This document shows positions 32,021 through 44,505 of a DNA stretch of 44,505 nt, piece after piece. A program made the position numbers and the translations under genes. The stretch spans positions 1 to 44,505 of the forward strand of contig JAPLCU010000029.1 in NCBI GenBank assembly GCA_026392045.1, written 5' to 3'. The notes beneath the pieces were generated by a model, which was given only the letters and a program-made list of their open reading frames with translations, was not told where the DNA came from and ran no database searches. The DNA is from Armatimonadota bacterium. GTDB lineage: Bacteria; Armatimonadota; UBA5829. Position 1 is the first letter of the stretch. Every line of letters starts with the position of its first letter.

Positions 32021-32434
32021 ATGCCTGCTTTTCCTGATCCCTTTTACGGGAACGTGCCTGATAGAAAAATGGCTCTTGGTGAACTTGTCCGGGCTTTGCG
32101 CTTGAATGTTGCGGCAGAAGAGGAAGCCGCAGCTTTATATGAAGCCCACGCCGACGCCACCGACAACCCCCTCGCGCGCAAAGTTCTGATTGATATAGCC
32201 AATGAAGAGCGTGTGCACGTGGGCGAATTTATCCAACTAATTAACATCCTCTCGGCAGGCGATGAAATTGCCTGGATGCAGAATGGCTATGAAGAAGTTA
32301 GAGAGATGGCTGAGGCAGTTGCGCGCGGAGACCTTGAGCCCGACACCCCCGCCGAAAAAGCGGCTAAAGAACATGGCCTGGCGGCTGGGGGCAATGGAAA
32401 TGGCAATGCGGCTACCATCGGTTCAATGAAATAA
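32021..32434 (+). CDS. Encapsulated ferritin-like cargo protein (EncFtn/Flp type)
   Basis: This 137-residue two-helix ferritin-like protein is the cargo of the encapsulin encoded 25 bp downstream. Helix 1, ELVRALRLNVAAEEEAAALYE (ligand Glu around 33-35), and helix 2, LARKVLIDIANEERVHVGEF (Glu62/63, His66), give the E...E-x-x-H metal set of EncFtn, which assembles as a ring of dimers with a ferroxidase site at the dimer interface. A flexible Gly/Asn-rich linker (GGNGNGNA) leads to a C-terminal targeting peptide ATIGSMK, a variant of the LTVGSLR type peptide that binds the shell interior. GGAGGT six bases before the ATG gives strong translation. The pair would oxidise and store iron in a nanocompartment. 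Confidence 0.92.
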   Translation: MPAFPDPFYGNVPDRKMALGELVRALRLNVAAEEEAAALYEAHADATDNPLARKVLIDIANEERVHVGEFIQLINILSAGDEIAWMQNGYEEVREMAEAVARGDLEPDTPAEKAAKEHGLAAGGNGNGNAATIGSMK

Positions 32435-32459
32435 TGCTTCACAGAAGGGACTGCGAATA

Positions 32460-33266
32460 ATGGCCAACAAATATCTTGGACGTGAAGATGCGCCGTTTGG
32501 CAATGAAATATGGGGAAAGCTGGATGAAGTTGTGATTTTAGCGGCCAAGGCCCAGCTTTCAGGCAGAAAACTACTGGATATAGATGGGCCTTACGGGCTT
32601 CAGATGAAAAGCTTTCCTCTGCTGGATAAGGTCGTAAGCGAGAACTGCGCCACGCTTAGCTCATCGGCTGTAATGCCAGTTCCGATGATCGAGACCACAT
32701 TCAGCCTTGGCTCGCGAGATTTAGCCACTTTCGAGGAGACGGGTTTCTCTCTGGACACCTCCGCGGTTGCCAAAGCCGCGATGACCGCCGCCGTCGCTGA
32801 GGACATGCTCATCTTTGAGGGAAACAAAGCTCTTGGAATAGACGGTCTATTGACAGCCGAGGAAGCGCAGCGCCTCAAACTCGGCAATTGGGATGAGATC
32901 GGAACTGCCGCGAGCGATATAATCAAAGCAGTTACCACGCTCGATGATGCGGGTTTCCACGGCCCTTACCTGCTCGCGCTGGCTCCGGGGCTCTATAACA
33001 TGCTCCACAGGCTCTACCCACAGGGGTATCAGATCGAGCTTCAGCACATCGAGAGCATAGTGGGCAGCAGCGTGATCAAGGCTCCGGGCATCAAAAGCGG
33101 CGGCATTCTCATTGCGGAGGGCAAGCAATTTGCCGCTATACTCATCGGTCAGGATATGACCGTTGGGTTCATTGGGCCTGAGGAATCATCATTGAAGTTC
33201 AAAATCACCGAGAGCCTGGCGCCGTTTATCAAGGCGCCATCGTCTGTTTGTGTATTGAATATTTAG
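32460..33266 (+). CDS. Encapsulin nanocompartment shell protein (family 1)
   Basis: This 268-residue protein has the HK97-like fold and self-assembles into an icosahedral protein shell. Family 1 signatures are visible: the N-terminal arm NKYLGREDAPFGNEIWGKLDEVV, the P-domain helix and the ELATFEETG-like segment RDLATFEETGFSLDTSA, NKALGIDGLL, and the C-terminal GFIGPEESSLKFKITESLAPFI. The ferritin-like cargo gene lies 25 bp upstream, so the operon is cargo then shell, as in EncFtn systems. AGAAGGGA lies ten bases before the ATG. The length matches family 1 T=1 shells (about 265 residues). A palindromic repeat 80 bp downstream could act as terminator. Confidence 0.95.
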   Translation: MANKYLGREDAPFGNEIWGKLDEVVILAAKAQLSGRKLLDIDGPYGLQMKSFPLLDKVVSENCATLSSSAVMPVPMIETTFSLGSRDLATFEETGFSLDTSAVAKAAMTAAVAEDMLIFEGNKALGIDGLLTAEEAQRLKLGNWDEIGTAASDIIKAVTTLDDAGFHGPYLLALAPGLYNMLHRLYPQGYQIELQHIESIVGSSVIKAPGIKSGGILIAEGKQFAAILIGQDMTVGFIGPEESSLKFKITESLAPFIKAPSSVCVLNI

Positions 33267-35506: not shown

Positions 35507-37411
35507 TCATTTGGTTAATGTTCCTTTTTTGGGCTTAGAAAATTCCAAAAACACTGAAAGCATGGCGATATCAGCAGGGGTCACGCCTGGAATTCGCGAT
35601 GCCTGACCGATAGTCACAGGCTGAATTCGCCCCAGTTTCTCCATGGCTTCGCGCGACAACGATTGCATCTGCGCGTAATCAGCGCCTTCAGGTATAATTT
35701 TGTCCTCAAGCTTTTTGGCCTGTTCAACCTGCAAATACTGGCGCTCGATGTATCCCTGATACTTTATTCCCAATTCTACCTGTTCTGCAACATCCGGCGG
35801 CACATGTCCATTACTAATTGCGCGGGCGATATCGGAATAATGCATTTCCGGCCTGCGCAATATCTCTTCAAGCGAACAGGATCGGTCGTTGATTTCCAGC
35901 CCAAGAGATTCAAGCACGGCTTTATCAGACGGTCTTACAAACGTTTCCGCCAACCGCTTGCGCTCGATTTCAATTTGCCTGGTCTTTTCCTGAAAGCGCT
36001 CCCAACGCTCGTCACTTACAAGCCCCGCTTCGCGCCCAATGGGGGTCATGCGGGCGTCGGCGTTATCCTGCCTCAGCAGCAGCCGATACTCCGCGCGCGA
36101 GGTCAGCAGCCTATATGGGTCATTCACGCCCTTGGTAACCAGATCGTCTATCATAACCCCAAGGTAACCCTCGCTGCGCTTGATAATAATCGGCTCTTGA
36201 CCGCGCAGTTTCCTGGCGGCGTTTATCGCGGCCAAAAGCCCCTGGGCGGCGGCTTCCTCATAACCCGAGGTGCCATTGATTTGCCCTGCGAAGAACAGCC
36301 CCGCCACAAGTTTGGTTTCTAATGACGGTTTCAACTGGGTGGGCGGCACGAAATCGTATTCAATTGCATAACCTGGTCTGAACATTCGCACGTTCTCAAG
36401 CCCCGGGATAGTCTTCAAGAACTCCAACTGGACTTCTTCCGGCAGGCTGGTGGACATTCCCTGCACGTAGATTTCGTCGCTGTCCCATCCCTCTTGTTCC
36501 AGGAACACCTGATGGCGTTTTCTATCGGGGAACTTGACGATTTTATCTTCAATAGATGGGCAATACCTGGGCCCGACTCCATTGATCCGGCCGCCATACA
36601 TGGCTGAGCGCAGCAAATTATCTCGGATCACGCGGCTGGTATTTTCATTCGTATATGTGAGCCAGCAGGAGAGCAGATGTTTCGGGAAACCCTTTTCCCG
36701 AAACCGTTTTTCTAGGTCGATCTTATCAGACATAAACGAGAACGGCCCAACCTTGGGTTCGGACTCCTGAATCTCGCATTTATCTATATCTATGGATTTC
36801 TTATCTATGCGCGGGGTTGTGCCGGTCTTCAGCCTGCCCAGCTCGAAACCCAGCCCACGCAGGCTATCCGAAAGCTTCATCGCCGCAAACTCACCAGCCC
36901 GACCTGCTGAAAATTGAGTTTCGCCGATGTGTATCAGGCCATTGAGGAACGTGCCGGTGGTCATTATCACGCACTTGCCGCCGTATTCGATGCCGGTTTC
37001 GGTGCGAATACCAACAACACGAGGCCCATCGGCGATGATTTCTTCCACCATCGCCTGTTTCACATCCAAATGGGCCTGGCGCATGATAGTCAGGCGCATG
37101 AAGTCTTCATAGAGGCGCTTATCCACCTGCGCGCGCAAGGCGTGAACCGCCGGGCCCTTGCCAGTGTTGAGCATGCGGATGTGGGTATAGGTGGCATCTG
37201 TGGCAAGGGCCTGCTGACCGCCCAGCGCATCAATTTCCCGCACCAAATGTGATTTGGCAGGGCCGCCAATGCTGCAATTACACGGCATGTGGGCTATGGT
37301 TGTGATATTTATTGTGGTCAGGAGGGTGTCAAACCCCATCCTCGCAGAAGCCAACGCAGCCTCACAACCAGCATGCCCCGCGCCTATTACTATGACATCA
37401 TATTCTTTCAT
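35507..37411 (-). CDS. mnmG: tRNA uridine-5-carboxymethylaminomethyl modification enzyme (FAD)
   Basis: The 634-residue product (GidA) works with MnmE to install the cmnm5 group on U34 of tRNAs. The FAD-binding motif is [21 protein letters not shown] at the start; the family blocks [21 protein letters not shown], AGPxxG-type [38 protein letters not shown] and [16 protein letters not shown] are all present, followed by the helical C-terminal domain ([20 protein letters not shown]). Residues about 236-245 ([10 protein letters not shown]) come from a 26-bp palindrome and form an insertion of roughly ten residues before [10 protein letters not shown] relative to other MnmG proteins; the frame is intact. 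It is followed by rsmG. The 5' untranslated region is short, with TATAAT on the minus strand about 10 bp before the start. Confidence 0.97.
36679..36704. repeat. 26-bp perfect palindrome inside mnmG
   Basis: This is identical to the intergenic copy at 33341-33366. It is read in frame on the minus strand as RFREKGFPK, between KIDLEK and HLLSCW, and lengthens a loop of MnmG. A palindromic mobile repeat inside a coding region is the pattern known from Rickettsia palindromic elements. Confidence 0.85.
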
Positions 37412-37646: not shown

Positions 37647-39026
37647 ATGAGTTATTCCGGAGACAAAACGACAGTGCTAACTAACGATGGTGCCGTAAAT
37701 TTGCAAGTTTCATTACCTCCAATGACTGACTATGCTGAATACGTCGCGTCACTGGAGCAGAAAGTCAACCGGACTCTTGGTATAGAAAAATTCATTGTTG
37801 AGCAGAGCGAACTTCTAACGGTTCTGAATGGCGAACCAAGTCGTCAACTTAGACGTCTAGTAAAAATAGATGCCCGAAGAGCTTCTGGCGCATTCTTCAC
37901 GGACTCGCAACTGAGAGATAGGGCTCTTGAACATATTGGGAGAACCATTGATGCGCGATCAATCATACTTGATCCTGCATGTGGAGCTGGCGACCTCCTC
38001 ATAGCGGCGTCCAACTATCTTCCTGTGTGCAACAATAACTTAGCTGATACATTGGATTTATGGGGCACGGTTCTGAACGGGTATGACATACATCCTGAGT
38101 TTATTAGGACGACAAAGGCGCGCCTAGTCTTGGCTGCTGTCAAGCGTATGAAGTCATCTCATTATATTGTCGACAGTATAGATCCACGTTGCCTTTTTTC
38201 CAACATTCAAGTGCGAGACAGCCTTGATGGACACAGTTTTCACTGTAAACCGACACATATAGTAGTTAACCCCCCATACTCTTCGATTGACGCCGCAGCA
38301 GATTGTAAATGGGGCGGCGGCAAAGTATCTGTCGCAGGTGTATTCTTGGATGTATGTCTGCGCAGTGCAAAGGACGATACAGTAGTTTGCGCAATCCTTC
38401 CTGACGTATTAAGATCGGGCTCACGATATAAGAAGTGGCGTGAACAAGTGGAATCAAGCGCCAAAATATCGGCTGTGGATATTGTGGGACAATTCGACAT
38501 TTGGACGGATGTGGATGTCTTTGTTCTGCACTTGCAGGTCGACTCAACAAATGCGCGCGGAAGCAGAAGCGCGTGGGGTCAGCCAGAAACCAAGGAAGAT
38601 AACTGTGTAGACGATCTCTTTGAAGTATGCGTAGGAGCAGTCATTCCCCACAGGCATGCGCACACAGGGCCATGGCGCAGGTATATCTGCGCTCGCCAAC
38701 TATCTGGCCTAACCGAGTATGATACTGATACTGCGAAATCGCGTCGTTTTCAGGGACGTGTCTTTAGGCCGCCATTTGTTGTCGTGCGTCGGACAACTCG
38801 CCCAAGCGACTGTGCCAGAGTTTTTGGAACCGTCATTACGGGAGAGCAACCTGTGGCAGTCGAAAACCACCTTATAGTGTTGAGCCCCAAAGATGGGACC
38901 CACGAAACATGCGCGCGACTTATTGATGTGGTGCAGAACCCAAAAGCAACTACGTGGCTAAATCAGCGTATACGCTGCAGGCATTATACTGTTCTTGCCT
39001 TACGAGAACTGCCATGGTGTGAATAA
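37647..39026 (+). CDS. N6-adenine DNA methyltransferase-like protein
   Basis: This 459-residue protein has the layout of gamma-class (type I/IIG) adenine methyltransferases: motif X, RASGAFFTD (79-86); motif I, ILDPACGAGDLLIAAS (107-122, SAM binding); and motif IV, VVNPPYSSI (206-214, catalytic NPPY). An SLD-rich segment and motif VIII-like strands (VVCAILPDVLRSGSRYKKWRE) follow. The C-terminal 150 residues, containing FRPPFVVVRRTTRPSDCARVF and ENHLIVLSPK, look like a target-recognition domain. No endonuclease domain is seen in it, and none is encoded next to it except possibly the MBL-fold protein. It is the first gene of a tight operon; the next start lies 1 nt after its TAA. Confidence 0.8.
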   Translation: MSYSGDKTTVLTNDGAVNLQVSLPPMTDYAEYVASLEQKVNRTLGIEKFIVEQSELLTVLNGEPSRQLRRLVKIDARRASGAFFTDSQLRDRALEHIGRTIDARSIILDPACGAGDLLIAASNYLPVCNNNLADTLDLWGTVLNGYDIHPEFIRTTKARLVLAAVKRMKSSHYIVDSIDPRCLFSNIQVRDSLDGHSFHCKPTHIVVNPPYSSIDAAADCKWGGGKVSVAGVFLDVCLRSAKDDTVVCAILPDVLRSGSRYKKWREQVESSAKISAVDIVGQFDIWTDVDVFVLHLQVDSTNARGSRSAWGQPETKEDNCVDDLFEVCVGAVIPHRHAHTGPWRRYICARQLSGLTEYDTDTAKSRRFQGRVFRPPFVVVRRTTRPSDCARVFGTVITGEQPVAVENHLIVLSPKDGTHETCARLIDVVQNPKATTWLNQRIRCRHYTVLALRELPWCE

Positions 39027-39027
39027 C

Positions 39028-41130
39028 ATGTCCAATGAAGAAAGCATTATAAACGAAGATACAGAGCCAACAGTATCGCTCAAGTTCGCCCCCGACATAC
39101 TGCGAAGGCTGGGTGAAGAGTTGATACCCCACGTCGACCAAGGCATTCTTGAACTCGTACGTAATGCCTATGATGCAGATGCTGTTAATTGCAGTGTTGA
39201 ATTAATTGATGTCGAGAACGCAGGCGGCGCAATCCGTATTGTCGATGATGGCACTGGAATGAGTTATTCTGACATCACAGCAGGGTGGCTAGTGCTTGGC
39301 CGTTCCGGAAAGGTCGGGCGCGAACTAACTAAGAAATTGCAACGGCTTCCTGTGGGTGATAAAGGCCTTGGACGTCTTGCCGCACTTAGGCTCGGAGCGC
39401 AGGCTAGATTAGTTACACGTTCTGCAGATAATCCAGGCATCGAGTACGAATTGACGCTCAACTGGACTGACTTCGATAAAGCTGCTACAGTGGAAAGCGT
39501 GCCTCTAAGAATTGAACAGCGCGTCTCTATTGCCGCACCCGGCACTGAGATTGAGATTATAGGACTACGCATTTCGCTCAATCGCATGGACGTGCAAAGA
39601 CTTGCTCGCTCCTTAGTGCTGCTCGCAGACCCATTCGGCAGCTCAACAGGATTCCGCCCGACACTTCAATCGCCTGAATTTGAAGATATATCAAGGTTAG
39701 TGTCTGATTTGTATTTTGATGATGCAGAGTTTAAATTAGTAGCGGAACTCAACGCTGAAGGACAAGCATCAGCTGTAGTCTACGGATATCCCTCAAGTAA
39801 CGTTCTGTTTCGTACGAACGCGAGCGACCTGAATGCACCATACAAAACTGCTCTTGCCAGTTTTACTATGTGGACATTCGTATTAGACAAACCCACCTTT
39901 TCTCGGCGAAATTCTAGCGTAACCGAGGTCAGAGATTGGCTTCAAGAAGTGGGAGGGGTGCATCTATACCATAGGGGACTAAGGGTCTACCCTTATGGTG
40001 ACAAGGGGCATGATTGGCTGGATATGAACCTGAGGCGTGCACAAAGCCCTGAAGTGCGCCCATCTACAAACACCGTTATTGGACTAGTTAAAGTCGAAGA
40101 TGGCGGCGATGTACTGCTCCAGAAGACAGACAGAACTGGATTTGTTGAAAATGAAGCATTCATAGAACTGAGGCGCTTTGCCCACGATGCGCTTGAGTGG
40201 ATGGCAAAGGAAAGACTCAAGCAACGAGAGATTAGGCGTATCCAAGATAAGACTACCGCAGAGGAAAAGCTTGCGCAGGCCAAGGGGCTTGTTTCAAATG
40301 CGATAAAGGAGCTGCCCAACGAGTATAGATCCAAAGTAGAGAATGCAGTTAAGAAGCTGGAAGACGAAGGAGAGCGGGTAGCGAAATCACTCAAAGAAGA
40401 TTTGCATCTCTACCGCACACTCGCAACAGTTGGAACAACCGCAGCTGTTTTTGCACACGAATCAGCTCAGCCTGTGACACGTATTGAGAGAACGGCCGAC
40501 GAGATTATGCGCCAAGTTAAGGGAGAACTTAACCTATACGAACGCGACAATATCGCTACCTTGGCAGACATTGTCAAAAAAGCCAGTCGCTCGATAAGAA
40601 GCTTCGCGGGCTTACCTATTAATCTGCTTAAACGTGAAAAGCGAAAACTAGGATCCGTCGATATCAATGCTGTAGTCACTGATCTTTCAGAGCTATTTAC
40701 TCCGTTTCTTACTGAATCTAAAATAGGCGTAAAGCTAACGCTTATTGACAATCCTAGCCCGGTGGTGTGGGGTAGCATAACATCCATAGAATCTATAGTA
40801 GCGAATCTGCTGACGAACGCGGCTCATGCGCTAATCTACCGTGGCAGAAAGCGAACTGGAATTAGATCAATTCTAATTGAGACGTCTCTTTCTTCGGACA
40901 AAGTGTTACTCAGAGTTTTGGACAACGGCCCCGGGATAAAGAACATAAATAAGGATGAAATCTGGCTTCCTGGAAGAACCACAAAAACCGGAGGTTGCGG
41001 ACTGGGATTGACTATTGTCAAGGATGTGGCAACTGACCTCAATGGTAATGTTCAGGTCATTTCACCTGGAGAGTTGGGGGGCGCCGAATTCCTGGTTCTG
41101 TTACCGCTGTTTCTGAAAGAAGGAGACTAA
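39028..41130 (+). CDS. Dual-ATPase protein: MORC/HSP90-like GHKL domain fused to a histidine-kinase core
   Basis: This soluble 700-residue protein has two GHKL ATPase domains. The N-terminal one has ELVRNAYDADA (42-52, N box), DDGTGM (73-78, G1) and GDKGLGR (110-116, G2), and is followed by a transducer-like segment with YHRGLRVYPYGDKGHDWLD (about 314-332), as in bacterial MORC/MutL-like ATPases. A coiled coil lies at about 395-460. The C-terminal half is a histidine kinase core: FAHESAQPVTRIERTADEI with His477 as candidate phosphoacceptor, NLLTNAAHA (593-601), VLDNGPGI (630-637) and TGGCGLGLTIVKD (654-666). There is no transmembrane segment, so the N-terminal ATPase may be the sensor. It starts 1 nt after the methyltransferase stop; the receiver gene follows after 7 nt. 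Confidence 0.85.
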   Translation: MSNEESIINEDTEPTVSLKFAPDILRRLGEELIPHVDQGILELVRNAYDADAVNCSVELIDVENAGGAIRIVDDGTGMSYSDITAGWLVLGRSGKVGRELTKKLQRLPVGDKGLGRLAALRLGAQARLVTRSADNPGIEYELTLNWTDFDKAATVESVPLRIEQRVSIAAPGTEIEIIGLRISLNRMDVQRLARSLVLLADPFGSSTGFRPTLQSPEFEDISRLVSDLYFDDAEFKLVAELNAEGQASAVVYGYPSSNVLFRTNASDLNAPYKTALASFTMWTFVLDKPTFSRRNSSVTEVRDWLQEVGGVHLYHRGLRVYPYGDKGHDWLDMNLRRAQSPEVRPSTNTVIGLVKVEDGGDVLLQKTDRTGFVENEAFIELRRFAHDALEWMAKERLKQREIRRIQDKTTAEEKLAQAKGLVSNAIKELPNEYRSKVENAVKKLEDEGERVAKSLKEDLHLYRTLATVGTTAAVFAHESAQPVTRIERTADEIMRQVKGELNLYERDNIATLADIVKKASRSIRSFAGLPINLLKREKRKLGSVDINAVVTDLSELFTPFLTESKIGVKLTLIDNPSPVVWGSITSIESIVANLLTNAAHALIYRGRKRTGIRSILIETSLSSDKVLLRVLDNGPGIKNINKDEIWLPGRTTKTGGCGLGLTIVKDVATDLNGNVQVISPGELGGAEFLVLLPLFLKEGD

Positions 41131-41137
41131 AACCACC

Positions 41138-41830
41138 ATGATCAATGGCATACAGAAGATCGCTATAATCGATGACAAAAGAGATGAAGTCATGCTCACA
41201 GGTATAATGCTGCAAAGAGTCGGTTTTGAACCCATACCGTTTTCCGAACCCGTACAGATGAACGATCTAATTGAGAGAATATTGAAAACCGCTGATGCCG
41301 CTTTGTGCGATAACTACCTACAACCCGGCGGTTTTGACTTTAGCGGAGCGGAAGTAATGGCAGAGCTTTACAAATTGAAGTTTCCGGCTGTTCTGGTATC
41401 GCAATATTTGCAGCAGGATCTGGAAGTGTCCATTCGCAAGGAACGTCGCAGCATTCCAGTTGCCTTAAGTAAGGATGATGTTGATGGCGATAGTATTATC
41501 GAAGGTCTTAAGATATGCGCAAATGAACATCGAGACATGATACTTCCAACTCGGCGACCTTGTCGCACGCTTATCCAAATAGCACGTGTAAAAGATGAGG
41601 ACGGCGAAAAAGTTCTGGATGCCTTCGTGGTATCACGAGGAAGCAAGCGTGCTGTTAGATTTCCGGCATCCTTAATGGGCCAACTCGCTGAACGTGTCGA
41701 ACGAGACGACTATTATATAGTAAGATCGAACACGGGTGCTACACTTGACACTGATCTCTTTTTCTATGACTTTGAGATCGCCCCTGAGCCACCCACGGAG
41801 GAAGAGATTGCACAAAGTAACAATCCTTGA
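41138..41830 (+). CDS. Receiver-domain protein with unassigned C-terminal domain
   Basis: The protein has 230 residues. Residues 1-125 fit a response-regulator receiver: IAIIDDKRDE (Asp12-Asp13), candidate phosphoacceptor Asp58 in AALCDNYLQPGG, VLVSQYLQ (the Thr/Ser position) and the conserved Lys112 in ALSKDDVD. The partner is most likely the kinase just upstream. Residues 140-215 (LIQIARVKDEDGEKVLDAFV, RAVRFPASLMGQLAERV, DYYIVRSNTGATLDTDLFF) form a small beta-rich domain that I do not recognise; it has no DNA-binding motif. AAGGAG (41119-41124) serves the start. The 3' end overlaps the next gene by 23 nt. Confidence 0.78.
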   Translation: MINGIQKIAIIDDKRDEVMLTGIMLQRVGFEPIPFSEPVQMNDLIERILKTADAALCDNYLQPGGFDFSGAEVMAELYKLKFPAVLVSQYLQQDLEVSIRKERRSIPVALSKDDVDGDSIIEGLKICANEHRDMILPTRRPCRTLIQIARVKDEDGEKVLDAFVVSRGSKRAVRFPASLMGQLAERVERDDYYIVRSNTGATLDTDLFFYDFEIAPEPPTEEEIAQSNNP

Positions 41831-42788
41831 TGTGGGACATGGGAACTGTGCTTTAATAAGTGATTCAGCAGGTTCTATTGTCATTGATGGCGGATCACAT
41901 CAGACTCTTCTTCAATATCTCGAATCGGCCAATATCAATATGATTGATGATGTCATAATTTCACATGCCGATGCAGATCATATTGGTGGCCTAATTGATG
42001 TATTTCTTAAATCCAAAATCGTCGTTAAGCGAGTGTTCGTAAATCCAGATGCTTTGCGTACGACTAATATGTGGGCTGAACTTCGCCTTGCTCTATCCGT
42101 CCGTCTCAAGAATAAAACGACAGAGATTCATACAGAATTGACATCAAATGTGTCATCCATACTTACAAGAAAAAGTTTAACAGTTGAGGTCTTGTACCCG
42201 TCTCCAATTTCGGCAATGTCCGGCATTGGAGGTGCCGATCTGGACGGCAAAATCAACGATCCTAATACAATGTCAGCAGTTGTACGCGTGATCGCCGATA
42301 CCGGCTTATCGCTGCTGCTGCCAGGCGATATAGACGATGTCGGATTAGACCGGCTAATCGCTGATAATATTGACATCAACGCGCGAATACTAATATATCC
42401 CCACCATGGCGGTCTGCCCGGTAATGGCGATATCTCCGAGTTTGTTAGTAAGATATGCAACAATGTTAATCCCGAGTTAATAATATTTTCAGTGGGCAGA
42501 GGCAAACACAATAATCCCAAGCCAGATGTCATAAAAGCTATTAGAACCGCCATACCAGACGTTCAAATCATGTGCACGCAACTCTCCGAGATGTGCTCAG
42601 GAAACACTCCCAGCTACGAACGACATCACAATAGTGATCGAGTCGCTCAGGGGCTTGAGACCAACGTATGCTGTGCAGGTAGCATTGAATTGAACTTGGA
42701 TACTGACCAAATAATCTGCTTGCCGTCTTTAGAGAACCATGCCGATTTTGTTAAAGAGTTTGCTCCATCTGCTTTGTGTAATAGTTGA
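41808..42788 (+). CDS. ComEC-like metallo-beta-lactamase-fold hydrolase
   Basis: This 326-residue protein resembles the MBL-fold domain of ComEC/Rec2 and related free-standing hydrolases. It has VTILDVGHGNCALI (usual form DVGQGDA), IVIDGG, the metal motif SHADADHIGGL (His53, Asp55, Asp57, His58), LLLPGDID with a metal-bridging Asp, and YPHHGGLPGN. This group includes nucleases and phosphodiesterases, so nucleic acid or a cyclic nucleotide is the likely substrate. It has no membrane segment. I start at TTG 41808, with GGAGG (41797-41801) six bases upstream and inside the receiver gene; an ATG exists at 41736 but without a site. It is the last gene of the operon; a strong terminator follows. 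Confidence 0.8.
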   Translation: MHKVTILDVGHGNCALISDSAGSIVIDGGSHQTLLQYLESANINMIDDVIISHADADHIGGLIDVFLKSKIVVKRVFVNPDALRTTNMWAELRLALSVRLKNKTTEIHTELTSNVSSILTRKSLTVEVLYPSPISAMSGIGGADLDGKINDPNTMSAVVRVIADTGLSLLLPGDIDDVGLDRLIADNIDINARILIYPHHGGLPGNGDISEFVSKICNNVNPELIIFSVGRGKHNNPKPDVIKAIRTAIPDVQIMCTQLSEMCSGNTPSYERHHNSDRVAQGLETNVCCAGSIELNLDTDQIICLPSLENHADFVKEFAPSALCNS

Positions 42789-42886: not shown

Positions 42887-42921
42887 AGTGTGGGGTCCGA
42901 AGTTGGACCCCACACTATTTT
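42887..42921. terminator. Bidirectional terminator after the four-gene operon
   Basis: AGTGTGGGGTCC (42887-42898) pairs perfectly with GGACCCCACACT (42905-42916) around GAAGTT; ATTTTG follows on the plus strand. It lies between the convergent ends of the MBL-fold gene and the GEVED gene. Confidence 0.85.
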
Positions 42922-42947: not shown

Positions 42948-44505
42948 TTATGGATGAGGCGTAAGATCGGATATGCTCCGCGGCACAAGCAGCCTGATTG
43001 GCACTCCATAGGGAGCCGTTGCGGGTATCGCCTTCAGAATGCCGGTCACAACATACATGCCAACCGGAGGGGCAATTATGCCGCTAGGCGTCACGACCGC
43101 TATGCCATGACTGGGCTCACCGGCATTAGTAGTGTAGCCGTCCATCAGATACGTGCCATCGTCGATCCAGAACACATCGACCCAATTGCCGGGAGTCAAC
43201 TCAACGCCGCCGTAGCCCGTGACATTACCCCAAGTGCGTATTAGTGAACCTACGTTGTTGAGGCTGGTTGCCGGGATCCACTGCGTCCCGGGCGTCAACG
43301 GAGTCAGTTTGTTCCACACGCCCGGCTGAGCGCCGAACGCGCCGCCGCCGGTGGCCTTGTTATTCATACCGAGCGGCGCGATAGTGGGTGTGTCCGTTTC
43401 AGTCAACACCACGAACGGGTTAACCATCAGCTCAGCCGTGTTGAAGAGTTGGGTCCAGCCTAACACGGAGTAGTTGTCACCAATGCTGAGCGGACTGCCC
43501 AGTGTAGTTTTCATCACACCAATACCGGATGCTCTGGTCGGCTCCTCGATATAGAACCAGTTCCACGGCGCCGGCCACACAGGTATTGCCAAGTCTGCTG
43601 TGAGTTCCTTGTCCTTCAGGAACACCAAGTGTGGGCCAAACGGTAGCAGTTTCTTCGCCTGTCCTATTGTAATAGGATCAGGCGCTGTTATCTTATTGGC
43701 GCTTGTCAGCGGCAGACCGGCGATTGCAGCCGGCAACAATGATATCTGCCCTTTTCCGACCGCTGCCGTGGCTACGCAACTGAGTATTTGCATCGGCGGT
43801 GTAGCAGGCGACATCTTATAGGACACTATGGCGCAAATGCTGCCGCTCGCAGGGATCACCGGGGGCGACGACAGCAAAGTGGTAACCGTTCCAGATGGCA
43901 TTGGAATGGAACCGAGAAGCACATCTCCGGGCACATCCACCTGACCATCCAAGTCCATATCCTGCCAAATATCCGCAGCCATAATATTACCAGGGAGACC
44001 GCCGATGAACTGCAGCGTTATGCTATCCCACCTGATCGGCTCGACCCAATCGGCCGACACTGTGAGGCTCAGCATTTCGTTATACTGGTCCGGATCGCTG
44101 GGCCACCAGAAGTGGTCTTTGATGGGCTTGTTCGTCGAGAATGTCAGCGTTCCCACAATCGGTTCGATCCTGACCATGTAGTCTTCGACCTCGCCATCAG
44201 GCGCCGGGCCGAAGAATGGCAATCCACCAATCGAGCTGAATCTGAACCTCGCGTAAGTCATCGTTGGCCAAGGCACACCAGGACCGGGCACAATGAATGT
44301 CAGCGTGTTATTGCCGGCCACCAGAGGCTGCCCTGAGAAGATCTGATCACCCAGGTCGGCCCAACTGCCGTTGCCGTTGAAGTCGACCCACACATCCAAC
44401 ATACCGGCTGCGCTTGCGATGACATTGACGATCGCGGGCTGGCCAGGAACCAGGGGGGTGAGGAAGAACACTCCATCCTCATCATCAGGACCAATTAGCG
44501 GGTTG
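42948..44505 (-). CDS. Secreted GEVED-domain protein with OB-fold-like C-terminus (5' end outside window)
   Basis: The frame is open to the right edge (Asn-Pro-Leu-Ile-Gly-Pro-Asp-Asp-Glu-Asp-Gly before the first visible segment), so the start lies outside. The visible part has about 518 residues. It begins in a GEVED domain: VWVDFNGNGSWADLGDQIF, NNTLTFIVPGPG, ARFRFSS and APDGEVEDYMV. A beta-rich middle follows with a dockerin-like Ca loop (DIWQDMDLDGQVDVPGDVLLG). The C-terminal region (NWFYIEEPTRASGIGV, LIRTWGNVTG, VTGILKAIPA) matches the OB-fold-like module at the end of the LamG-like protein. GEVED domains occur in large surface proteins of Bacteroidota, Planctomycetota and relatives. No catalytic residues are visible. 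It is convergent with the four-gene operon. Confidence 0.8.
   Translation of the reverse strand, partial: NPLIGPDDEDGVFFLTPLVPGQPAIVNVIASAAGMLDVWVDFNGNGSWADLGDQIFSGQPLVAGNNTLTFIVPGPGVPWPTMTYARFRFSSIGGLPFFGPAPDGEVEDYMVRIEPIVGTLTFSTNKPIKDHFWWPSDPDQYNEMLSLTVSADWVEPIRWDSITLQFIGGLPGNIMAADIWQDMDLDGQVDVPGDVLLGSIPMPSGTVTTLLSSPPVIPASGSICAIVSYKMSPATPPMQILSCVATAAVGKGQISLLPAAIAGLPLTSANKITAPDPITIGQAKKLLPFGPHLVFLKDKELTADLAIPVWPAPWNWFYIEEPTRASGIGVMKTTLGSPLSIGDNYSVLGWTQLFNTAELMVNPFVVLTETDTPTIAPLGMNNKATGGGAFGAQPGVWNKLTPLTPGTQWIPATSLNNVGSLIRTWGNVTGYGGVELTPGNWVDVFWIDDGTYLMDGYTTNAGEPSHGIAVVTPSGIIAPPVGMYVVTGILKAIPATAPYGVPIRLLVPRSISDLTPHP

What the first reader, a model, noticed from the sequence alone, without database searches (positions are those of the whole stretch)
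37647..42788. Four-gene operon: DNA methyltransferase, dual-ATPase kinase, receiver, ComEC-like hydrolase
Gene spacing is 1 nt, 7 nt and a 23-nt overlap, with one terminator at the end, so the four proteins are made together. Seen directly: NPPY methyltransferase, two GHKL ATPases in one protein with a candidate phospho-His, a receiver Asp, and an HxDxDH hydrolase. Known: MORC/MutL-like GHKL ATPases occur with restriction-modification systems (described by Iyer, Abhiman and Aravind). Inferred: the methyltransferase marks self DNA, the MORC-like domain senses foreign or unmodified DNA, the phosphorelay carries the signal, and the MBL-fold protein is the effector. I know of no named defence system with this gene set.
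Basis: partly seen in the sequence, partly recalled or inferred. Interest (0 to 1): 0.85.

Follow-up and report, generated by a model that had tools for sequence, protein, structure and literature searches.

The report
Kinase-controlled DNA restriction operon (predicted)
A bacterial four-gene set, shared with many distant bacteria and with phage genomes, appears to couple a DNA-marking enzyme to a DNA-cutting enzyme through a phosphate-passing sensor and relay, which would be a restriction system controlled by cell signalling; the function has not been tested.

Summary
In detail: four tightly packed genes (37647-42788) encode an N6-type DNA methyltransferase, a kinase with two intact GHKL ATPase domains, a receiver protein and a ComEC-type metallo-beta-lactamase (MBL) protein. 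It is a real, mobile unit. Of 58 homologous loci (ten phyla) with room to see, 54 keep kinase-receiver-MBL, 32 of these also the same methyltransferase. It lies on plasmids and inside phage genomes beside portal, terminase, tail or integrase genes. Catalytic residues are invariant (receiver D58; MBL HxDxDH-N-D-H, the ligand set of the ComEC nuclease). Kinase His477 is lost in only two proteins, both lacking receiver and MBL. A sister branch has a PtuB-like HNH nuclease in the MBL position, sometimes with the same methyltransferase. Best reading: a restriction-modification-like defence whose nuclease is gated by a His-Asp phosphorelay, with a MORC/SMCHD1-like module as sensor. Defence, sensing of unmethylated DNA and nuclease activity are inferred. 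Against strict methyl-self protection: a cyanobacterial group lacks the methyltransferase. Closest known: paraMORC systems (2008) and HEF_HK/Response_reg_2 two-component-like systems (2021), whose Pfam models do not match and which were not reported with MBL effectors. New variant of a known kind.

The parts
37647..39026 (+). DNA methyltransferase, N6-adenine type by motif (NPPY; D109-P-A-C-G-A-G SAM motif), 459 aa, with a C-terminal region that may be the target-recognition part
   Evidence: A5 alignment of 32 relatives keeps N208-P209-P210 and D109-P110 invariant; profile matches type I/II N6 methyltransferases such as EcoKI M and BseCI M in the PDB
39028..41130 (+). Sensor kinase, 700 aa: N-terminal MORC/SMCHD1-like GHKL ATPase (~15-180) plus transducer-like domain (~200-360), long helices with phospho-acceptor His477, C-terminal histidine-kinase ATPase (~546-695)
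40456..40458 (+). Codon of His477 (FAHE motif), candidate phospho-acceptor
   Evidence: H in 52 of 54 relatives; lost only in L062 and L063, which lack receiver and MBL
41138..41830 (+). Receiver protein, 230 aa: CheY-like domain (1-134) with D12/D13/D58 and a C-terminal beta domain (~140-220); no DNA-binding domain recognised
41309..41311 (+). Codon of Asp58, phospho-acceptor site of the receiver
   Evidence: invariant in 55 of 55
41808..42788 (+). MBL-fold hydrolase of ComEC type, 326 aa (TTG start, overlaps the receiver gene by 23 nt), predicted metal-dependent nuclease, with a conserved Cys/His cluster in the C-terminal part (C256, C263, C289, H311, C324)
   Evidence: ligand set compared with PMC8579336
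41798..41802 (+). GGAGG, likely ribosome-binding site of the MBL gene
   Evidence: read directly
42887..42916 (.). Terminator-like hairpin (13 bp stem) followed by T-rich sequence on both strands

Best explanation
A mobile restriction-modification-like anti-invader system in which a His-Asp phosphorelay switches the nuclease on. Proposed course: (1) the N6 methyltransferase (in other members another N6 or a C5 methyltransferase) marks host DNA; (2) the MORC/SMCHD1-like GHKL-plus-transducer half of the kinase binds and hydrolyses ATP and clamps on incoming, unmarked or otherwise abnormal DNA; (3) clamping drives autophosphorylation of His477 by the C-terminal kinase domain; (4) the phosphate passes to Asp58 of the receiver, which has no recognisable DNA-binding domain and so acts by protein contact; (5) the receiver activates the neighbouring ComEC-type MBL protein, which degrades DNA. 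Shown by sequence and model: domain content, intact catalytic residues, gene linkage, receiver fold, effector and methyltransferase swapping, presence in phage genomes. Inferred: DNA sensing, the direction of signalling, nuclease activity of this protein, and defence itself.
For: Linkage: 54 of 58 untruncated kinase homologues have kinase-receiver-MBL, 32 of them with the same methyltransferase, whose place varies (upstream, divergent, downstream), so more than operon drift. Reciprocal: among 72,556 plasmids the close kinase, receiver and MBL hits are the same three plasmids, and all four methyltransferase hits lie beside such a kinase, two with MBL and two with HNH. In 291 genomes of the window's phylum only two MBL proteins pass 380 bits (next best 116), both beside receiver and kinase. 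Effector swap: the sister branch has a PtuB-like HNH nuclease in the MBL place. MBL keeps H53-D55-D57-H58, N153, D174, H199/H200 in all 51: the Asp in motif II and Asn in motif III described for ComEC, whose domain is a Mn-dependent nuclease (PMC8579336); best PDB profile hits are ComEC. Phosphorelay: D58 invariant, and H477 lost only in two proteins lacking receiver and MBL. Kinase half matches ZraS/CpxA/HK853; N-terminal half matches SMCHD1 over ~430 columns. Mobility: four distinct phage contigs carry all four genes and a fifth has a C5 methyltransferase, with portal, terminase, tail or integrase genes on the contigs; present in 1 of 15 genomes of the window's family.
Against: No experiment exists. 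19 of 57 MBL systems in the tree set, mostly cyanobacterial, have no methyltransferase beside the operon, and 14 of their genomes hold no homologue of this family or of the L064 methyltransferase (the second had no positive control), so methyl-marking is not universal. The MBL nuclease activity is by homology only; MBL proteins have many substrates. A PADLOC scan of flanking genes was not decisive. The receiver lacks the usual Lys before the invariant Pro107.
Confidence: 0.6

Rival explanations
1. Abortive-infection type defence: the kinase senses a phage product or DNA structure irrespective of methylation, and the MBL enzyme destroys cellular nucleic acid or another essential phosphodiester. 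The methyltransferase only tunes or shields part of the systems.
For: A cyanobacterial group and some others have no methyltransferase near the operon. Related MBL effectors score in Lamassu LmuA, DRT-associated MBL and Avs1a models, which I know as defence systems, some of them abortive.
Against: A methyltransferase of one kind or another is linked to 38 of 57 MBL systems and keeps being replaced by other DNA methyltransferases, which a mere accessory would not explain well.
Confidence: 0.25
2. The kinase and receiver only control expression or timing of an otherwise ordinary restriction-modification pair.
For: Two-component regulators usually act on transcription; the three Streptomyces loci L062, L063 and L069 keep the kinase beside an N6 methyltransferase and, in L062 and L069, a BsuBI/PstI-type restriction enzyme, without the receiver.
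Against: The receiver has no recognisable DNA-binding domain in a high-confidence model, and its gene overlaps or abuts the MBL gene in nearly all members, which suggests coupled synthesis and contact.
Confidence: 0.08
3. Not defence: a cellular response to DNA damage or DNA uptake, with a ComEC-like nuclease.
For: ComEC is a DNA-uptake protein and MORC/MutL-like ATPases act in DNA repair.
Against: Patchy occurrence (1 of 15 family members), carriage by phages and plasmids, exchange of the nuclease and methyltransferase, neighbours such as HerA/DUF4297 anti-phage genes and, in the HNH form, Ppl.
Confidence: 0.07

Closest known systems
HEF_HK / Response_reg_2 two-component-like systems (Bellieny-Rabelo et al. 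2021, PMC8011034)
   Same: HATPase_c_3 plus phospho-His region plus HATPase_c in one soluble kinase, a neighbouring divergent receiver protein, and enriched restriction-modification genes.
   Different: Those are linked mainly to C5 methyltransferases, with HNH_2 or Vsr nucleases; MBL and phage are not mentioned. Kinase and receiver here do not match PF19191 or PF19192.
paraMORC GHKL ATPases of restriction-modification systems (Iyer, Abhiman and Aravind 2008, PMC2292703)
   Same: N-terminal GHKL ATPase with intact motifs followed by an S5-like transducer region, in operons with methyltransferases and nucleases.
   Different: The paper's text mentions no receiver, two-component system or lactamase; here the module is fused to a full histidine kinase.
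VcSduA (Shedu with a GHKL domain, paraMORC3; PMC12137116)
   Same: A GHKL ATPase controlling a nuclease, with shown anti-phage activity that needs the ATPase residue.
   Different: Nuclease fused to the ATPase; no kinase, receiver or methyltransferase.
ComEC C-terminal MBL domain (PMC8579336)
   Same: Same metal-ligand pattern and best sequence match of the MBL protein.
   Different: Here it is a free-standing protein with an extra conserved Cys/His cluster and no membrane channel.
Septu (PtuAB)
   Same: The sister branch's HNH nuclease resembles PtuB (73 bits).
   Different: No PtuA-like ATPase; the HNH protein occupies the place of the MBL effector behind kinase and receiver.
Detocs (from my own knowledge; no paper read)
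   Same: A histidine kinase and receiver used for defence.
   Different: In Detocs the receiver is fused to the effector and no methyltransferase is part of it; the kinase lacks the MORC-like module.

Membership tests
HEF_HK / Response_reg_2 two-component-like systems | Kinase matches the HEF_HK domain model (PF19191) | tested here: not met
   No match at E up to 0.05; the window is not among the hits at E up to 10 in its own genome, nothing over the cut-off
HEF_HK / Response_reg_2 two-component-like systems | Receiver matches Response_reg_2 (PF19192) | tested here: not met
   No Pfam family at E up to 0.05
HEF_HK / Response_reg_2 two-component-like systems | HATPase_c_3 + His region + HATPase_c kinase next to a receiver protein and restriction-modification genes | tested here: met
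paraMORC families (Iyer 2008) | N-terminal GHKL with intact ATP motifs plus S5-like domain | tested here: met
   Invariant E42, N46, D73, G75, G77, G110-K112-G113-G115; model matches SMCHD1 ATPase module
paraMORC families (Iyer 2008) | Placement in one of the numbered families paraMORC1-5 | not tested
   No alignment of those families at hand
Type II restriction-modification system | Methyltransferase and nuclease act on the same DNA site | not testable with these tools
   Needs methylome and cleavage assays
Type II restriction-modification system | DNA methyltransferase present in the unit | tested here: met
   Window and 32 of 58 loci; other methyltransferases in L058, L059, L064
ComEC-type MBL nucleases | HxDxDH motif II, Asn in motif III, Asp in motif IV, His in motif V | tested here: met
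   All invariant in 51 sequences; motif description in PMC8579336
ComEC-type MBL nucleases | Metal-dependent nuclease activity | not testable with these tools
   Needs purified protein
Two-component system | Phospho-acceptor His and Asp with intact kinase and receiver folds | tested here: met
Lamassu / DRT with MBL / AVAST type 1 / Septu | Their companion proteins (SMC-like LmuB, reverse transcriptase, STAND NTPase, PtuA) | tested here: not met
   The other three window proteins match none of these models in PADLOC
Detocs | Receiver domain fused to the effector (definition from my own knowledge) | tested here: not met
   Receiver and MBL are separate proteins in the window and in the relatives

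The most novel reading that the evidence does not exclude
A restriction system in which foreign-DNA recognition by a MORC-like ATPase is converted into a His-Asp phosphorelay that licenses a ComEC-type MBL nuclease, with methyltransferase and nuclease as exchangeable modules around a fixed kinase-receiver core.
Probability: 0.5. Interest if true: 0.85.

Novelty: new variant of a known kind. Interest (0 to 1): 0.72.

Why it matters
Known restriction enzymes find and cut DNA by themselves. Here a signalling relay seems to stand between recognition and cutting, which would explain how such cells delay or gate a dangerous nuclease. The wide spread (ten phyla, phages, plasmids), the exchange of nucleases (MBL, HNH) and of methyltransferases, and the loss of the phospho-His together with its partners give clear, testable predictions. 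It would also give a bacterial setting for what MORC/SMCHD1-type ATPases sense.

Tried and rejected
Single-protein scan of genome contigs found nothing; an alignment was needed. [quoted passage not shown] Search for a described system with this gene set: no paper found; NCBIfam and PADLOC give only distant hits. The idea that methyltransferase-less cyanobacteria keep the same enzyme elsewhere in the genome was tested and not supported (the A5 search had no positive control). Defence-island enrichment by PADLOC on 143 flanking genes: mixed hits, mostly more methyltransferases and restriction enzymes, no control run, so not used as proof. GenBank phage records: no kinase match, although IMG/VR contigs hold it. 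Promoter scan: no excess. [quoted passage not shown] the structural searches listed essentially receiver-domain matches, so its fold is left open. The mechanical ORF start of the MBL gene (GTG 41736) was replaced by TTG 41808 because of the GGAGG in front of it and the N-termini of relatives.
Full report
What is there. The window carries four genes on the + strand between the divergent mnmG gene (35507-37411, -) and a convergent GEVED-domain gene (42948-44504, -). They are a methyltransferase at 37647-39026, a kinase at 39028-41130, a receiver at 41138-41830 and an MBL protein at 41808-42788. The MBL gene starts with TTG at 41808, behind GGAGG. A terminator-like hairpin lies at 42887-42916 and reads on both strands. 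Pfam finds N6_Mtase/Eco57I, HATPase_c_3 and HATPase_c, nothing for the receiver, and Lactamase_B. NCBIfam's best hit for the MBL protein is ComEC/Rec2.

It is a conserved unit. Three plasmids in very different bacteria (Pseudanabaena, Hymenobacter, Burkholderia) hold kinase, receiver and MBL together. The last two also hold the methyltransferase. An alignment-based scan of GTDB genomes gave 80 loci. Of 61 loci in the close kinase group (window and plasmids included), 58 are not cut off by a contig end; L065, L066 and L070 are. Of these 58, 54 have kinase-receiver-MBL and 32 of the 54 also the same methyltransferase family. The methyltransferase lies upstream, upstream on the other strand (L035, L041, L049, L057) or behind the MBL gene (L047, L053). 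It stays linked although its place changes. The systems come from Cyanobacteriota, Chloroflexota, Acidobacteriota, Pseudomonadota, Planctomycetota, Actinomycetota, Bacteroidota, Gemmatimonadota, Thermodesulfobacteriota and Spirochaetota. Receiver and MBL genes overlap or nearly touch in almost all; in 20 loci the receiver stop and the MBL core motif lie at exactly the same distance.

The reverse tests agree. A profile of the MBL family in 291 genomes of the window's phylum gives only two proteins above 380 bits, the window's and one in G063. The next is at 116 bits. Both top hits lie beside receiver and kinase; none of the 28 other MBL stretches fetched does, within loci of about 3-4 kb. In 72,556 plasmids the only MBL proteins at 33% identity or more are on the three plasmids named above. 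The methyltransferase family occurs on four plasmids: the two named and two more (K. variicola, R. phaseoli). The latter two carry kinase-receiver-HNH beside it, with kinase genes broken into several frames.

It moves with phages. A scan of IMG/VR gave four distinct contigs with all four genes in order (L128, L131, L132, L133; L129 is a near-copy of L128) and one with kinase-receiver-MBL and a C5 methyltransferase (L130; its kinase and receiver frames are split). Flanking genes are phage genes: L128 has portal and terminase genes directly behind the MBL gene, L132 has an integrase directly in front of the methyltransferase, L131 and L133 have tail genes, L130 a terminase. From my own knowledge, the stretch beside the portal gene of P2-like phages is a known hotspot for anti-phage genes. 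In the window's own family 1 of 15 genomes has the kinase, and the genes around mnmG differ among relatives.

Catalytic residues. In the kinase, E42, N46, D73, G75, G77 and the G110-x-K-G-x-G motif of the first ATPase, and N593, N597, D632, G636, G658 and G660 of the second, are invariant in 54 sequences. H477 is H in 52 of 54. The two exceptions (L062 Y, L063 R) are Streptomyces proteins that have lost the receiver and the MBL gene (L063 has 9 kb of sequence to look in, L062 only about 1 kb). L069, a third locus without receiver and MBL, still has the His. This is the pattern expected if His477 serves to pass phosphate to the receiver. In the receiver D13 and D58 are invariant and D12 is D or E; the usual Lys before Pro107 is missing, while R100 is nearly invariant. 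In the MBL protein H53, D55, D57, H58, N153, D174, H199 and H200 are invariant in 51 sequences. PMC8579336 describes for the ComEC domain exactly an Asp in place of a motif II His and an Asn in place of the motif III His, and shows Mn-dependent nuclease activity. ComEC chains are also the best profile matches in the PDB. A Cys/His cluster (C256, C263, C289, H311, C324) sits in the C-terminal part and may bind a structural metal; this is inference.

Models. The receiver model (mean pLDDT 96.3) has a CheY fold at 1-134 (Z 13-14) and a C-terminal beta domain whose fold is left open. The kinase model (pLDDT 86.7) has a C-terminal half like ZraS, CpxA and HK853 (Z about 20-22). Its N-terminal half aligns with the ATPase module of SMCHD1, a MORC-like protein, over about 430 columns (E about 1e-12; the attribution to the N-terminal half is by length and domain order).

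Relatives and module exchange. The more distant kinases (25-29% identity) form other branches. One branch has kinase, a receiver of about 215 aa, and an HNH nuclease of about 210 aa, mostly with an N6 methyltransferase. Its receivers are homologous to the window's (hhalign probability 97.8%, over the first ~130 residues). The HNH protein resembles PtuB of Septu (73 bits). Three of these HNH systems in the tree (L085, L134, L152) carry the same methyltransferase family as the window. Another branch has C5 methyltransferase, kinase and a larger receiver-like protein of 340-460 aa, which matches the description in PMC8011034. Inside the MBL branch, L058 and L059 have a C5 methyltransferase less than 5 bp behind the MBL gene and L064 has another N6 enzyme. 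In a kinase tree of 126 rows the MBL systems fall in one group of 62 rows (SH-aLRT 100). The effector label needs 6 changes, the methyltransferase label 18. So the kinase-receiver core is stable, the nuclease is exchanged at times, and the methyltransferase more often. That the MBL protein stands where an HNH nuclease stands in the sister branch is the best sequence argument that it is a nuclease.

How it may work. See Best explanation. The steps marked as shown rest on the calls above. DNA sensing, signalling direction, nuclease activity and defence are inference from families: paraMORC systems in restriction-modification operons (PMC2292703) and VcSduA, where a GHKL ATPase with a nuclease was shown to stop phages and needs its ATPase residue (PMC12137116).

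What speaks against. Nineteen of 57 MBL systems, most of them one cyanobacterial branch, have no methyltransferase beside them. Their genomes show no member of this methyltransferase family (which had no positive control) and no homologue of the L064 enzyme (which found its control). Either they use another methyltransferase of the cell, or methylation is not needed and the system reacts to another trait of foreign DNA. The PADLOC scan of neighbours was not controlled.

Known or new. No model in PADLOC v2.0.0 (2023) or NCBIfam names it, and no paper in the library described the four-gene set. The library lacks most subscription papers, so a description there cannot be excluded. The general association of such kinases, receivers and restriction-modification genes is known (PMC8011034). 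What is new here is the branch with a ComEC-type MBL effector, its carriage by phages, the modular exchange, and the joint loss of phospho-His and partners. I rate it a new variant of a known kind.

Noticed in passing
window 32021-33266: An encapsulin shell gene (Linocin_M18, 236 bits) preceded by a small rubrerythrin/ferritin-like gene of 137 aa whose tail may be a cargo-loading peptide: a likely encapsulin with ferritin-like cargo.
   Followed up: partly
L062, L063, L069 (Streptomycetaceae): Kinases of the same clade without receiver and MBL, beside an N6 methyltransferase and, in L062 and L069, a BsuBI/PstI-type restriction enzyme; two have lost the phospho-acceptor His but keep both ATPase sites.
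   Followed up: partly
L076, L084, L075, L072, L015 and viral L134, L147, L152, L164, L172, L174: Sister system: kinase, short receiver, PtuB-like HNH nuclease and N6 methyltransferase, also on viral contigs.
   Followed up: partly
L011:12848-14801: Pseudanabaena plasmid copy whose MBL gene is interrupted by an IS982 transposase.
   Followed up: no
L200 (K. variicola plasmid) and L014 (Enterobacter mori plasmid): An HNH-type and a large-receiver-type system both lie next to the same PTS glucitol/sorbitol genes, one beside anti-phage Ppl, the other near an AbiJ-NTD4 gene: possibly a shared plasmid site for exchangeable defence genes.
   Followed up: no
L061:11878-12285: In a Thiomargarita contig the receiver is followed by a PIN-domain gene, then a Fic gene, instead of the MBL gene.
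   Followed up: no
window 41808-42788, C-terminal third: Conserved C256, C263, C289, H311 and C324 in the MBL protein, possibly a second metal site.
   Followed up: no
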